The position numbers were made by a program, and so were the translations under genes. Under the pieces are notes generated by a model that was given only the letters and a program-made list of their open reading frames with translations, searched no databases and was not told the origin of the DNA. A stretch of 64,000 bases of DNA, taken from positions 3,560,501 through 3,624,500 of the forward strand of contig NZ_CP047045.1 of assembly GCF_009792355.1 (NCBI RefSeq), in the 5' to 3' direction. How positions within the stretch are numbered: position 1 is the first letter of the stretch; each line of letters starts with the position of its first letter. This DNA is from Terricaulis silvestris (GTDB lineage Bacteria > Pseudomonadota > Alphaproteobacteria > Caulobacterales > Aquidulcibacteraceae). Positions 8,765 to 31,852 of this stretch are shown piece by piece.

Positions 8765-8799
8765 TCTCCAACGGCACCGTCCGCGACGTCGCAAGCACA

Positions 8800-8850
8800 G
8801 CGTCCCTTCTCCTGGTTGAGAAGGTGGCCCGAAGGGCCGGATGAGGTTTA
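8800..8850 (+). repeat. Left inverted repeat (copy A) of DUF559 unit 1
   Basis: A two-hairpin repeat. The first arm pair is CTTCTC/GAGAAG around a TGGTT loop. A second hairpin, GGCCC-GAA-GGGCC, follows, and the unit ends GGATGAGGTTTA. It is the inverted counterpart of copy C at 9317-9370. The second hairpin is written with different bases in the two copies but stays fully paired. Confidence 0.75.
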
Positions 8851-8864
8851 CTGGAGGTGCAAGG

Positions 8865-9272
8865 ATGAAGCACGATCCTGACTCCGTCAGCCGTGCGCGA
8901 GCAAGCCGCAAGGATCAAACGGGCGCTGAAGCAAAGTTATGGTCGCTCTTACGCAATCGACGCCTGATCAAGCACAAATTCAGACGCCAGTATCCGATCG
9001 GCCCATGGGTGGCGGATTTCGCATGTCCAGCCATCAAGTTGGCGATCGAAGTAGATGGCCCGTCGCACGACACATCAGACCAACAAGCGTGGGACGAGAT
9101 GAAGACCGGATATTTGAGAACATCCGGCTGGCGCGTCATCCGCGTCAAGAACGCCGATGTCTACCAAGCTCTCGGCGAAGTCGAAGCCGCATCATCGCAG
9201 AAGTTGGCGACTAAGGCGTCCCCTCTCCCGGTTAGGGAGAGGGTGTCAGTGAGCGAAGCGAACGACGGGTGA
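8865..9272 (+). CDS. DUF559 domain protein (Vsr-like endonuclease fold)
   Basis: This 135-residue protein carries the DUF559 core. RARASRKDQTGAEAKLW leads into FRRQYPIGPWVADFAC, then LAIEVDGPSHD and WRVIRVKN. DUF559 belongs to the PD-(D/E)XK/Vsr-like nuclease clan. The candidate catalytic residues are the D of VADF and the E-x-D of EVDG. ATG 8865 is preceded by GGAGG at 8853-8857. The reading frame runs into repeat copy B, so the last ~20 residues are encoded by the repeat. Inverted repeats A and C enclose gene and copy B. Activity as a nuclease is inferred from the fold. Confidence 0.85.
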   Translation: MKHDPDSVSRARASRKDQTGAEAKLWSLLRNRRLIKHKFRRQYPIGPWVADFACPAIKLAIEVDGPSHDTSDQQAWDEMKTGYLRTSGWRVIRVKNADVYQALGEVEAASSQKLATKASPLPVRERVSVSEANDG

Positions 9273-9280
9273 GGTTTGCC
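9216..9280 (+). repeat. Internal direct repeat (copy B) of DUF559 unit 1
   Basis: Begins GCGTCCCCTCTCCC and pairs with GGGAGAGGG, continues with a hairpin around GAGCGAAGCG, and ends GGGTGAGGTTTGCC. It has the same order of parts as copy A and the same orientation. It overlaps the 3' end of the DUF559 gene and supplies its stop codon. Confidence 0.65.
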
Positions 9281-9316
9281 GACCCATCGGAATGAGACTC
9301 AATCTGCTGCGCGCGG

Positions 9317-9370
9317 TAAACCTCATCCGGCGCTTCGCGCCACCTTCTCCTTAACCAGGAGAAGGAACGC
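9317..9370 (-). repeat. Right inverted repeat (copy C) of DUF559 unit 1
   Basis: Read on the minus strand this is nearly identical to copy A: CCTTCTCCTGGTT, AGAAGGTGG, then a GGCGC-GAA-GCGCC hairpin and GGATGAGGTTTA. Copies A and C differ by a 2-base indel and a few substitutions. The hairpin change (GGCCC/GGGCC against GGCGC/GCGCC) is compensatory. Its outer end contains AGGAGAAGGA, which is well placed to act as the ribosome-binding site of the next gene. Confidence 0.75.
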
Positions 9371-9371
9371 A

Positions 9372-9854
9372 GTGTCTGAAGCAGTAGAGCTCCCCATGAT
9401 CTCCCCAAACGGCATCGCCCACATCCAGCTCACCGTTCGCGACGTTGACGCGTCGCGACCGTTCTATCATCGCCTGCTCGTCGAAACCTTCGGCATGTCG
9501 ATCCAGTACGATGTGCCGACGCAAATCTTCTACTGCATCGGCGCGCGCACCGGCGTACTGATCCGCCCCGCCGCGCCCGAGCATCGCGACACGCCGTTCG
9601 ATCAATGGCGCGTCGGCCTGCATCATTTCTGCTTCCGCTTGCGCTCACGCGAGGACGTGGACGCACTGCACACCTCGATGCGAGAGTTTGGCGCCACCAT
9701 CATCCGCGCGCCGCAAGAAGATGCTTGGGCGCCCGGGTATTACTCGATCCTCATGGAAGATCCCGACGGCATCCGCATCGAAGGCGTGTTCATCCCTGGC
9801 AGCGGCAATCTCGATCGCATCAAGGACGCGCCGCTAACGCCGACGCTGGTCTAA
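9372..9854 (+). CDS. VOC (glyoxalase/bleomycin resistance) family protein
   Basis: About 160 residues with one vicinal-oxygen-chelate module pair. GIAHIQLTVRDVDASRPFYH opens the domain, LHHFCFRL starts the second half, and YYSILMEDPDGIRIEG closes it. The His, His and Glu of these segments are the usual metal ligands. VOC proteins include glyoxalase I, dioxygenases and resistance proteins, and this one cannot be assigned further. GTG 9372 is chosen because AAGGA lies 5 bases upstream, within repeat copy C; ATG 9396 is the alternative and begins directly at the domain. The stop overlaps that of the convergent GGEEF gene by 3 bases. Confidence 0.85.
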   Translation: MSEAVELPMISPNGIAHIQLTVRDVDASRPFYHRLLVETFGMSIQYDVPTQIFYCIGARTGVLIRPAAPEHRDTPFDQWRVGLHHFCFRLRSREDVDALHTSMREFGATIIRAPQEDAWAPGYYSILMEDPDGIRIEGVFIPGSGNLDRIKDAPLTPTLV

Positions 9855-29267: not shown

Positions 29268-29913
29268 GCGGGCATGGGTTCGCGTCGTGCGGACTTGAGG
29301 TCCACGAAGATGGGAGTCCGGGGCGCGCGATCCGCGCTGAGTAGTCTCTGTAGGGTGCATCGATCGTCTCCGATCCATGCCGCGCACTTCGCGCACCCCG
29401 GTTGCCGGTCGTTTTTTCCCGGCCTGGGACGAGGAGTTGTAGAACGCTGACGATGGCCAGCTCGCCTCCGCACGGTGCGCTTCCGGGGCTACCCTTCGAA
29501 GGATCTCCCCTTAGGGCTTAGCTCCATTCCCAATTCGCCGGTGCTGAGTGCGGCGCTTCCGTTGCGCTGGGCTTTGCGGTTTCACTCCCCGCAAACAGAA
29601 CCACTCCGACCGTGTCCACACATTCCAAAGTTTCGGACGTCTCAGAAATCTCCCGTGTGCGGACGGACGCACTGTAGGCGCGGAGTCAATTCGGTCGGAT
29701 AGATTGGCGCAAATATTTTCAGGTTGGAGCGCGCGCCTCCGGCGCGCATTGGGCGCTTAAGCCTGAAAGTAAAGGCGTAAAAGATGCGGGCCGGAGGCCC
29801 GCGCTCCAACCTTCTTCGTGCGGAAGTGTTGGATAGAGGGGGCATCTATCCCCGCATTTCTGCGCTGGCCGGCGAGACGCCGGCGCTCCATATCTGAGCT
29901 GAAGGAGCCGCCC
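29268..29913. other. Gene-poor intergenic stretch, 646 bases
   Basis: No reading frame here has coding character on either strand. The first 450 bases lack recognisable repeats and could be decayed sequence. From 29722 a pair of inverted repeats and hairpins begins, and a further hairpin (GCCGGCG...CGCCGGC, about 29868-29885) lies just upstream of phhB. No tRNA, SRP, RNase P or tmRNA signature was recognised. Confidence 0.5.
29722..29811. repeat. Inverted repeat pair with internal GC hairpins
   Basis: GGTTGGAGCGCG (29722-29733) and its exact complement (29800-29811) bracket 66 bases. Each arm carries its own 7-bp hairpin with a triloop: GCGCGCC-TCC-GGCGCGC at 29731-29747 and GCGGGCC-GGA-GGCCCGC at 29787-29803. 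This is a miniature palindromic element of a dispersed intergenic kind. No coding content lies between the arms. Confidence 0.7.
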
Positions 29914-30198: not shown

Positions 30199-30199
30199 T

Positions 30200-30249
30200 C
30201 CCTCGCCCCGCGCAGCGGGGGAGGGTGTCGCGAAGCGACGGGAGGGGGA
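30200..30249 (+). repeat. Left inverted repeat of DUF559 unit 2
   Basis: Arms CCCTCGCCCCGC and GCGGGGGAGGG form one hairpin around GCA. A second hairpin GTCGC-GAA-GCGAC follows, and the unit ends GGGAGGGGGA. The inverted partner is at 30644-30684. The order of parts equals that of the repeats around unit 1. GGAGGGGG at its end is well placed as the Shine-Dalgarno for GTG 30252. Confidence 0.75.
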
Positions 30250-30251
30250 CA

Positions 30252-30657
30252 GTGAAACATCCTCCAGAGGTGAACCGCGCAAGGCCTGCGCCAAACGCAA
30301 AGCGTCGCAGAGACGGTTTTGTGGGAGCGCTTGCGCCGCAATCAGCTCAACGGTTGGGGCTTTCGCAGACAGGCGCCGCTGGGTGGATATGTTGTGGATT
30401 TTCTTTGCCACAAGCCCGCGCTGATCGTGGAAGTCGATGGCGCCGCGCATGACGACGAAGAGCAGAAAACGTTCGACGCAGCTCGAACAGCGAAGCTTGA
30501 AGAGCTCGGTTACTTGGTTATCCGCGTGAGGGAGCATGTTGTGCGCGACGGCGTGGAGCATGTGCTTGCGTGGGTCGCGAGGGTTGGCGCGCTGGTTTTG
30601 GAAACGAAGTTTGTGCCGGTCTTGCTTCGGAGAATGGATAGCGTCCCCCTCCCTTGA
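30252..30657 (+). pseudogene. DUF559 gene (Vsr-like endonuclease fold), apparent 5' frameshift
   Basis: The core reads cleanly from about 30286: LRQTQSVAETVLWERLRRN, then GFRRQAPLGGYVVDFLC, LIVEVDGAAHDD and LGYLVIRVRE, with the same candidate catalytic D and ExD as the intact copy at 8865. The proper N-terminus lies in another frame from GTG 30252, reading VKHPPEVNRAR against MKHDPDSVSRAR of unit 1. The frames join only if 1 base is removed or 2 added near 30284. A shortened product from TTG 30319 remains possible. The reading frame ends inside the right repeat. Confidence 0.6.
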
Positions 30658-30684
30658 TCCCTCCCCCGCTTTGCGGGGCGAGGG
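30644..30684 (-). repeat. Right inverted repeat of DUF559 unit 2
   Basis: On the minus strand: CCCTCGCCCCGC, AAA, GCGGGGGAGGG, a short ATCAA where the left copy has its second hairpin, then GGGAGGGGGA. Apart from that replacement and the loop it matches the left copy base for base over 33 positions. It ends 3 bases before the stop of the convergent DUF2474 gene. Confidence 0.75.
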
Positions 30685-30687
30685 AAA

Positions 30688-30834
30688 TTAGAGGATCAGC
30701 GCCCGCAGCGCGTATGCCACCGCTGCCACCGCCGCCAAACTCCCGCACCACAGCGCTACGAACCACAGCAAGCGTTTGCCCAGCGGACGCGGGGCTTCGC
30801 CGGGTTCGGGCGGGCCTTCAATGATAGGCGGCAT
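30688..30834 (-). CDS. DUF2474-type small subunit associated with cytochrome bd oxidase
   Basis: 48 residues: a Pro/Glu-rich soluble start (MPPIIEGPPEPGEAPRP) and one transmembrane helix (LLWFVALWCGSLAAVAAVAYAL). Position and size match DUF2474, a CydX-like accessory peptide found after cydB in cyanide-insensitive-type oxidases. The start lies inside cydB (17-base overlap), which implies coupled translation. Confidence 0.8.
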   Translation of the reverse strand: MPPIIEGPPEPGEAPRPLGKRLLWFVALWCGSLAAVAAVAYALRALIL

Positions 30835-31852
30835 CGTCGTCCACCTTGGCGCGGAAGGTCCAATACACATAAGCGGTATACGCGAGGATCAGCGGCAGCA
30901 TTGGCGCTGCGCCCCACAACATGAACTCTAGCGCGTTGTCGGCGGCGGCAGCATCGGCCGGCGTCATCGCGAAAGGCACGATGTAGGGGAAGAGCGACAC
31001 CGCGAGTCCGATGTAGCCGACCGCAAATAAACCCACCGCCAACAGATACGGCGCAATCAGCGGCTCGCCTTTCCAACGGCGCCACAACGCGAAGCACACC
31101 GCGCCGGCGATCAGGGGCAATGGCGCAAGCTTCGCAAACACCGGCCAATCGACGCTTGTCATCGTCAGACCCCAGCGCGCCGTCACGCGCGGATCGACGC
31201 CGAGCGTGGCTAAGCTCACCGCGCCCATCGCCAGCGCCGTCAGCACCGCGAGTTGCTTCACCCAATTGCGCGCGCGCTCGTAGAGTTCGCCGCGCGTCTT
31301 GAACACCATCCAGCAGGCGCCAAGCAGCGCGTATCCAGCGACGAGCGATGCTGCGACCAGCAACGAGAACGGAGTCAGCCAATCCAGCGCGCCGCCTGCG
31401 AACTGACCGTCGGCGCCGATGGACACGCCTTGAATGAAACCGCCTAGCACCAGCCCCTGCGCCACAGCGGCGACGATCGAGCCGGCGGAGAACGCGAACG
31501 TCCACCACTTCTTCCCTGCCCCGCGCCCGTGATGGCGAAACTCAAAGGCGACACCGCGAAAGATCAGCGCGAGCAGCATGAGGTAGATCGGCAAGTACAA
31601 AGCCGGCATCAAAGCCGCGTAGGCTTTCGGAAACGCCGCGAACAAACCGCCGCCGCCGAGCACGAGCCAAGTTTCGTTGCCGTCCCACACCGGCGCGATG
31701 GCGGACTGCATCTGATCGCGCTCGCGCGTATCCTTTGCGAACGGAAAGAGGATGCCGACGCCGAGATCGAAGCCATCGAGCGCCACATAGAGAAACACCG
31801 CGACGGCGATCAGCACCGCCCAGATCATCGAAAGCTCGGCGCCGAAGACCAT
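30818..31852 (-). CDS. cydB: Cytochrome bd-type ubiquinol oxidase subunit II
   Basis: 344 residues, about eight or nine membrane helices. LYVALDGFDLGVGILFPF, the conserved WDGNETWLVLGGGGLFAAFP and AYALMPALYLPI are diagnostic of CydB. It stabilises the haem b595/d site formed with CydA and helps deliver protons. It starts directly after the cydA stop. Subgroup features fit the CioB line. Confidence 0.96.
   Translation of the reverse strand: MVFGAELSMIWAVLIAVAVFLYVALDGFDLGVGILFPFAKDTRERDQMQSAIAPVWDGNETWLVLGGGGLFAAFPKAYAALMPALYLPIYLMLLALIFRGVAFEFRHHGRGAGKKWWTFAFSAGSIVAAVAQGLVLGGFIQGVSIGADGQFAGGALDWLTPFSLLVAASLVAGYALLGACWMVFKTRGELYERARNWVKQLAVLTALAMGAVSLATLGVDPRVTARWGLTMTSVDWPVFAKLAPLPLIAGAVCFALWRRWKGEPLIAPYLLAVGLFAVGYIGLAVSLFPYIVPFAMTPADAAAADNALEFMLWGAAPMLPLILAYTAYVYWTFRAKVDDDAAYH

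What the first reader, a model, noticed from the sequence alone, without database searches (positions are those of the whole stretch)
30200..30684. Second, independent DUF559 unit with the same plan but different repeat sequence
Left (30200-30249) and right (30644-30684) inverted repeats match over 33 positions, but differ in sequence from unit 1. They keep the order C-rich arm, G-rich arm, GAA-loop hairpin, purine-rich end. As in unit 1, the DUF559 reading frame ends inside the right repeat. The unit fits exactly between phhB and a convergent gene, 1 and 3 bases from their stops. Two occurrences with a shared architecture but different sequence argue for a real system of cognate repeat and protein pairs rather than chance.
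Basis: partly seen in the sequence, partly recalled or inferred. Interest (0 to 1): 0.7.

Follow-up and report, generated by a model that had tools for sequence, protein, structure and literature searches.

The report
DUF559 nuclease bracketed by triplex-type repeats
A small nuclease gene sits between two inverted copies of a folding DNA repeat, and this pairing recurs in many bacteria, which suggests that the nuclease is the enzyme behind a widespread repeat family whose origin was unexplained.

Summary
At window 30199-30686 a DUF559 reading frame lies between inverted repeats and ends inside the right one. Only the left repeat has the GAA-loop hairpin, and the frame lacks a normal start, so this copy is probably decayed.
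The pattern is general. Inverted repeats (score 36 or more) flank 75 of 96 DUF559 units from the genus and order and 68 of 97 in a wider set. Controls of the same geometry give 5 of 5501 and 1 of 795.
Each repeat is C-arm, G-arm, linker or hairpin, then a second G-arm mirroring the first. This is the anatomy of the E. coli BoxC/PIT/"intrastrand triplex" repeat, near whose copies its 2015 survey found no mobility gene.
Repeat type tracks the DUF559 protein, even when shuffled within genomes. Motif and DUF559 co-occur across genomes, with exceptions. The window's family has gene-less copies, empty sites in relatives and a member at another locus. E. coli K-12 ycjD ends inside a BoxC copy.
Best reading: DUF559 is the dedicated nuclease of these repeats, with REP/RAYT-like logic but a different enzyme and DNA structure. 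Cleavage and movement are inferred, not shown.

The parts
30199..30252 (+). Left arm: C-arm, G-arm (hairpin 1), GAA-loop hairpin 2, second G-arm
   Evidence: DNA fold z -3.4
30274..30657 (+). DUF559 (PF04480) reading frame; TGA just upstream, first in-frame standard start TTG 30319; stop 30655-30657 inside the right arm; probably decayed at the N-terminus
   Evidence: (E 9.7e-32)
30642..30686 (-). Right arm, inverted copy: C-arm, G-arm, short linker, second G-arm; its bases code for the last residues VPLP
   Evidence: DNA fold z -3.5
30688..30870 (-). Short convergent gene next to cydB/cydA-like genes (names recalled), right neighbour
8796..8851 (+). Unit 1, left outer arm (CCTTCTCC type)
8865..9272 (+). 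Unit 1 DUF559 gene; stop 9270-9272 inside an internal repeat at 9217-9274
9316..9374 (-). Unit 1, right outer arm

Best explanation
The unit is one (decayed) member of a widespread class of very small elements: two inverted structure-forming ends around a single gene for a DUF559 nuclease of about 110-140 residues (PD-(D/E)XK type, Vsr/I-Bth0305I-like fold). The ends belong to, or extend, the BoxC/PIT/intrastrand-triplex repeat family. The nuclease most likely recognises its own type of end, probably when single-stranded and folded (hairpin plus mirrored third strand), and cuts there. Repair or recombination then copies the element, or a gene-less two-end version, into intergenic sites, at least sometimes just behind stop codons. 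Shown here by sequence: the association, cognate pairing, mirrored third arm, gene-less derivatives, empty sites and different loci, and the nuclease fold of a relative. Inferred: binding and cleavage of the ends, the single-stranded substrate, and the repair route.
For: Flanking inverted repeats: 75/96 and 68/97 units against 5/5501 and 1/795 controls. Linker class agrees left-right in 98 of 110 units with both arms parsed. The second G-arm mirrors its own first G-arm: 5.08 against 3.74, 0 of 1000 permutations; mirror beats direct 65 to 16, 22 ties. Protein-repeat covariation. Co-occurrence (both/motif only/DUF559 only/neither): 77 Alphaproteobacteria, one per family, 18/3/3/53, p 9e-12; counting only copies beyond two per gene, 12 of 21 against 2 of 56, p 5.5e-7; 103 non-alpha genomes 11/7/3/82, p 5e-8. 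Gene-less copies of the window's repeat at G000:1219396-1219505 and 3018575-3018694 with the same long-arm/short-arm asymmetry, each starting 3 bases behind an open frame. A 76%-identical protein lies on another contig in G022, whose phhB site has no unit. The own genome has 8 DUF559 and no Y1 transposase hit. Fold: PDB 3hrl, 3r3p (I-Bth0305I), more weakly Vsr. A BoxC copy lies across the ycjD stop codon in E. coli, E 1.2e-8.
Against: No cleavage, binding or movement was observed. No clear target-site duplication. Genome G075 has 42 motif copies and no DUF559 hit; 7 of 18 non-alpha motif-bearing genomes lack a strong DUF559 hit. 21 of 96 and 29 of 97 units lack a flanking pair at score 36. A unit's own right flank is its best partner among 96 in only 26 cases, in the best three in 56, since related units share repeats. 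Only two gene-less two-arm copies of the window's family were found in its genome. E. coli ycjD has no BoxC on its 5' side. PMC4666352 (section read) reports that in vivo footprinting did not support stable triplex formation. A Caulobacter DUF559 protein has been proposed to be a mismatch-repair enzyme (PMC12907096).
Confidence: 0.6

Rival explanations
1. Homing-type element: DUF559 is a free-standing homing or recombination-promoting endonuclease that cuts unoccupied intergenic sites; the repeats are boundaries or by-products and the unit spreads by gene conversion at preferred sites.
For: Fold match to homing endonuclease I-Bth0305I. A DUF559 unit directly behind phhB was seen in three of 28 genus genomes with a phhB match: G000, G005, and G012 with another repeat type. 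The window protein is no closer to the one at the same site in G005 (74%) than to the one elsewhere in G022 (76%).
Against: Units of one family sit at different loci, and gene-less copies keep only the ends, so the ends rather than a target are conserved. Repeat type covaries with the protein.
Confidence: 0.2
2. Passenger: the repeats are moved or maintained by something else, or kept as terminators or RNA structures, and DUF559 is cargo or a neighbour.
For: G075 has many copies without DUF559; many motif pairs enclose no gene. Arms fold as hairpins.
Against: Inverted pairs of this geometry are rare away from DUF559 genes; in G056 the three inverted motif pairs 230-360 nt apart enclose its three DUF559 hits. 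Cognate covariation. PMC4666352 (passages and sections read) cites a lack of promoter and terminator activity of PIT elements and reports no mobility gene near the E. coli copies.
Confidence: 0.13
3. Housekeeping repair: DUF559 is a Vsr-like mismatch nuclease serving a cytosine methyltransferase, as proposed for Caulobacter VsrA; the repeats are incidental.
For: PMC12907096 (passages read): VsrA (CCNA_02930) has a DUF559 domain, and the SOS response of cells without the ScmA methyltransferase depends on it. Vsr fold similarity.
Against: Several divergent copies per genome (8 here) with differing repeat types, and signs of mobility, are not expected of a repair enzyme. VSP repair activity is a hypothesis in that paper.
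Confidence: 0.07

Closest known systems
REPtron: REP repeats with RAYT/TnpA-REP (Y1 HUH) gene
   Same: One small nuclease gene between inverted structured repeats; gene-less dimers in intergenic DNA; repeat type pairs with enzyme type (the last recalled for RAYTs)
   Different: Enzyme is a PD-(D/E)XK Vsr-like nuclease, not a Y1 HUH transposase; repeat is C-arm/G-arm/mirrored G-arm; no Y1_Tnp hit in the window's genome
BoxC / PIT / TM (intrastrand triplex motif) repeats, PMC4666352
   Same: Same anatomy, and near-identical sequence for the short-linker type (CCCTCTCCC..GGGAGAGGGTTAGGGTGAGGG)
   Different: That paper names no associated gene in what I read; here long-linker types with hairpin 2 are added and both are tied to DUF559
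Caulobacter VsrA (CCNA_02930), PMC12907096
   Same: DUF559 domain, Vsr-like fold
   Different: Studied as a putative repair nuclease linked to ScmA methylation; the passages read mention no flanking inverted repeats; its flanks were not examined here
Homing endonuclease I-Bth0305I (PDB 3r3p)
   Same: Second-best solved structure by profile and by fold, after a DUF559 protein itself
   Different: Intron-encoded, cuts a defined intronless site (recalled); here there are structured ends, gene-less copies and different loci
CGTC REPs, PMC3733652
   Same: Small palindromic repeats, mostly of Alphaproteobacteria, stated to lack a dedicated transposase
   Different: 8-9 bp stem, 4-5 nt loop and CCA tail in that paper; not the repeat found around DUF559 here

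Membership tests
DUF559 (PF04480) | Profile match above the curated cut-off | tested here: met
   109.5 bits against cut-off 20.6
DUF559 (PF04480) | Conserved PD-(D/E)XK core | tested here: met
   D42, E53, D55, H59, D68 (first-row numbering) invariant in all 19 aligned proteins, window included; model of a relative (L069) matches 3hrl, 3r3p, Vsr. Assignment to catalysis is recalled, not tested
REPtron / RAYT | Y1 HUH transposase (PF01797) gene | tested here: not met
   No PF01797 hit in G000; the gene here is PF04480
REPtron / RAYT | Gene flanked by inverted structured repeats also found without the gene | tested here: met
REPtron / RAYT | GTAG-tagged repeat | tested here: inconclusive
   No GTAG seen at the arms of the window unit; not counted over the units
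BoxC/PIT/TM repeat | C-arm, G-arm, short linker, purine third arm in mirror register | tested here: met
   110 of 193 units have parsed arms on both sides, 37 of these short-short; mirror test on 118 distinct of 277 arms. The window's left arm is the long-linker variant, its right arm has the short linker
BoxC/PIT/TM repeat | Forms a triplex in single-stranded DNA | not testable with these tools
   Reported in vitro for the E. coli motif, not supported in vivo, in PMC4666352 (abstract and section 20, part 1)
Insertion sequence | Known transposase and target-site duplication | tested here: inconclusive
   No transposase family among the Pfam matches; TAG occurs on both sides of the window unit but may be two stop codons
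Homing endonuclease element | One conserved target sequence interrupted | tested here: inconclusive
   Related units lie at different loci, but target sequences were not compared

The most novel reading that the evidence does not exclude
DUF559 nucleases are the missing mobility enzymes of the BoxC/PIT/intrastrand-triplex repeats of bacteria, E. coli included (YcjD). Together they form a new class of minimal mobile element, about half a kilobase, whose ends are recognised as folded single-stranded triplexes by a lone PD-(D/E)XK nuclease.
Probability: 0.45. Interest if true: 0.92.

Novelty: new variant of a known kind. Interest (0 to 1): 0.82.

Why it matters
BoxC/PIT/triplex repeats are known from E. 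coli and more than 260 bacterial genomes, and the 2015 survey states that their mechanism and origin remain unanswered and that no mobility gene was found beside the E. coli copies (PMC4666352). A gene family that brackets itself with these repeats, covaries with their type and co-occurs with them across genomes turns that into a question testable in E. coli K-12 (ycjD and the 23 listed copies). It would also suggest a function for a large family of unknown-function nucleases, and add a non-transposase enzyme to the short list thought to spread REP-like DNA.

Tried and rejected
Ordinary terminators: rejected as the main account because inverted pairs of this geometry are rare away from DUF559 genes. 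CGTC REPs as the repeat: rejected, since their stem, loop and tail differ (PMC3733652 section 6). RAYT in trans: no PF01797 hit in G000. Known defence gene: only weak partial PADLOC matches, E 2.7e-4 to 4.5e-3, inside longer proteins, and a weak NCBIfam match of one protein to an anti-phage protein, E 8e-4. Structured-RNA family: no Rfam match in the four loci tried reaches its gathering score; sX13 at E 0.042 on L138 is below it. A clean empty site for ycjD in E. coli: of the strains without the K-12 arrangement, the three looked at carry other genes there, so they say nothing about the element's ends. The E. coli BoxC dimer at hrpB-mrcB is absent from one ST131 genome, but without base-exact borders. 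A strict scan for repeats in 864 kb gave 11 calls against 5 on reversed sequence and missed the window unit itself; not used.

Results against my reading: G075 and 7 of 18 non-alpha motif-bearing genomes lack strong DUF559; 18 of 87 typed units have different left and right stems; stop inside the right arm only 31 of 75; own right flank ranks first of 96 in only 26 units. The co-occurrence tests use no phylogenetic or base-composition model; the larger-genome subset (3 Mb or more) still gives p 2e-7.

Rows dropped: one search listed 128 DUF559 hits in 41 genomes (my sum of its table); 97 loci were fetched, chiefly leaving out further copies in order genomes and weak hits. One search used 96 of 100 domain hits (short domains or flanks dropped). 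One search used 97 units from 108 loci, of which L201-L205 repeat loci; one search left these five out. Searches used only parsed arms (118 distinct of 277 arms; 96 and 69 labelled rows of 187; FastTree). DUF559 'strong' means E below 1e-15; the looser cut gives 19/2/10/46, p 5.8e-9. In one search I entered 9 strong hits for G054 where one search shows 8; rerun, the Spearman value stays 0.82. The class sample and phylum sample share some alpha genomes; the alpha part of the latter gives 22/1/4/20.

Full report
What is there. The window is G000:C1:3560501-3624500 of a 3.86 Mb genome. Its genus appears to be Terricaulis (Hyphomonadaceae): two contigs of the same-genus genome G015 have the lengths (1,780,775 and 299,252) of contigs of a Terricaulis MAG. 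Between phhB and a convergent short gene lies a unit of 488 bases, 30199-30686: left arm, DUF559 reading frame, right arm. Arms 30199-30225/30659-30685 match 25 of 27 and 30240-30250/30643-30653 match 11 of 11. The left arm is C-arm, G-arm, GAA hairpin, second G-arm; the right arm has a short linker in place of the hairpin. The DUF559 stop lies in the right arm, whose bases code for the terminal VPLP; the relatives in G005 and G022 also end in VPLP. The frame has TGA at 30271-30273 and no standard start before 30319, while the G005 copy starts with GTG at the equivalent place, so the window copy is probably decayed; its core matches PF04480 at 9.7e-32.

Is it more than chance. I fetched 97 DUF559 loci: 8 of the own genome and 89 from 24 genus and 16 order genomes, of 128 hits in all in those genomes and G000. 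Upstream flank against reverse-complemented downstream flank scores 36 or more in 75 of 96 units; flank pairs from different units do so in 9.4%, part of these being related units. Sliding windows of the same geometry over 864 kb of the own genome reach 36 in 5 of 5501; two of the four places are the DUF559 units of the window. In a wider set (80 named loci; 28 new class loci) 68 of 97 units reach 36 against 1 of 795 control windows in the same loci. Those that do include records named Alphaproteobacteria, Gallionellales, Gammaproteobacteria, Gastranaerophilales and Chloroflexi, many of them MAGs.

The repeat. A parser found C-arm/G-arm/linker/second-G-arm on the left in 130, on the right in 147 and on both sides in 110 of 193 units. 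Linker class (7 nt or less, or 10 nt or more) agrees left-right in 98 of 110. Over 118 distinct arms the second G-arm matches the mirror image of its own first G-arm better than permuted arms do (5.08 against 3.74, 0 of 1000), and mirror beats direct match 65 to 16 with 22 ties among 103 asymmetric arms (binomial 3.6e-8). Mirror symmetry is what a purine third strand needs (established triplex chemistry). This is the anatomy of the E. coli BoxC/PIT/TM repeat: PMC4666352 (abstract, section 18, part 1 of section 20, passages) lists 23 copies in MG1655 and more than 260 genomes with the motif, reports triplex formation in vitro but no support for a stable triplex in vivo, saw no mobility genes near the copies and calls mechanism and origin unanswered.

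Cognate pairs. Left and right stem types agree in 69 of 87 typed units (25.5 expected, maximum 39 of 2000). On a FastTree protein tree of 187 rows the linker class (96 labelled rows) changes 11 times (null 28.6, minimum 23 of 200) and the stem type (69 rows) 18 times (null 32.8, minimum 27); outside the genus/order set 8 against 16.1 (50 rows) and 7 against 12.9 (35 rows). In 67 units of 21 genus genomes, after dropping pairs with homologous flanks (1953 of 2083 kept), protein and arm similarity correlate at 0.299; shuffling arms only within genomes gives 0.049, maximum 0.168 of 500. So the repeat follows the protein and not only the genome.

Mobility. The window's repeat recurs without a gene at G000:1219396-1219505 (left arm 98% identical) and 3018575-3018694, with the same long-arm/short-arm asymmetry; open frames of 267 and 408 codons end 3 bases before them. 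Of 28 genus genomes with a phhB match, G000 and G005 have a unit of this family behind phhB and G012 one of another type. G004, G008, G016, G024, G041 and G044 have phhB within about 10 bases of the convergent gene's end; G019 and G022 have other short sequence there and G023 a different palindromic element; in many others phhB has another neighbour (the output was cut, so L182, G015, was not fully seen). G022 carries a 76%-identical protein with similar arms on another contig; the G005 protein is 74% identical. Base-exact borders could not be set because intergenic DNA is too diverged.

Co-occurrence. A strict motif pattern (reversed control: no hits) and strong DUF559 hits in 77 Alphaproteobacteria, one per family: both 18, motif only 3 (G049, G075, G085), DUF559 only 3 (G073, G100, G108), neither 53; p 9e-12; genomes of 3 Mb or more p 2e-7; Spearman 0.82. 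Requiring at least four motif copies beyond two per gene: 12 of 21 against 2 of 56, p 5.5e-7. In 103 non-alpha Pseudomonadota: 11, 7, 3, 82, p 5e-8; by family 8, 3, 2, 20, p 4e-4. In G056 the three inverted motif pairs 230-360 nt apart enclose its three DUF559 hits, and in G183 a pair encloses another. No PF01797 hit in G000; 16 of 30 genus genomes have one.

E. coli. In the 11 kb stretch of K-12 read there is one annotated DUF559 gene, ycjD. Copy 9 of the published list (1351204-1351239) lies beside it. A profile from six repeat arms at three other K-12 loci finds this copy (3.9e-13) and a second, opposite in strand to ycjD, across the ycjD stop codon (1.2e-8). The 5' side has none.

Enzyme. 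The AlphaFold model, made for a relative from G005 (L069, pLDDT 86.6), matches the DUF559 structure 3hrl, homing endonuclease I-Bth0305I and, more weakly, Vsr (by profile). PMC12907096 (passages) shows a Caulobacter DUF559 protein on which the SOS response of cells without a cytosine methyltransferase depends; this is consistent with nuclease action in the cell and is the basis of a rival reading.

How it most likely works. A DUF559 nuclease recognises its own repeat ends, probably folded in single-stranded DNA, and cuts; repair spreads the unit or the gene-less two-end form. The first half rests on covariation and fold, the second on gene-less copies and co-occurrence; no step of the reaction is shown. 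The logic is that of REPtrons (PMC3733652; section 6, part 1 of section 17, passages), but the enzyme test for REPtron membership fails, so it is not one.

In print. Searches for DUF559 with inverted repeat (0 papers), DUF559 alone (14 papers listed; passages read in one), motif strings (25 of 71 papers listed), ycjD/BoxC/triplex/PIT/Vsr-like (only PMC4666352) and REP/Vsr/RAYT (5 listed) showed me no paper linking DUF559 with these repeats; searches gave no lead beyond PMC3733652, which one search listed. Other papers were seen as listings only. Most subscription papers and all bioRxiv preprints are outside that library.

Noticed in passing
L106:16950-17790 (G000:C1 about 804950-805790): Different palindromic element (CACCCATTCCCGGG...), two inverted copies within 1 kb, no DUF559 hit; resembles CGTC-type REPs as recalled. 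GTCATTCCGG hairpins sit at the phhB site of G022 and G023 (L178, L169).
   Followed up: partly
window 29722-29812: Another inverted repeat (GGTTGGAGCGCG...CGCGCTCCAACC) upstream of phhB, seen by eye only.
   Followed up: no
window 9217-9274: Unit 1 has a third, internal repeat of another stem type (CCCTCTCCC) into which its DUF559 frame reads; a close copy of this repeat lies at G000:C1:2399444-2399496.
   Followed up: partly
L309:6204-6420 (NC_000913.3 about 1351203-1351419): E. coli ycjD and two BoxC copies; 3330 of 5426 genomes keep at least 80% of the K-12 stretch; three others looked at carry different genes there.
   Followed up: partly
G075: Alphaproteobacterial genome with 42 repeat copies and no DUF559 hit: loss of the enzyme, a different enzyme, or an assembly gap.
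   Followed up: no
L177, L168, L192 (phhB 3' ends): Three DUF559 units of two repeat types behind phhB in three genomes: possible preferred insertion site.
   Followed up: partly
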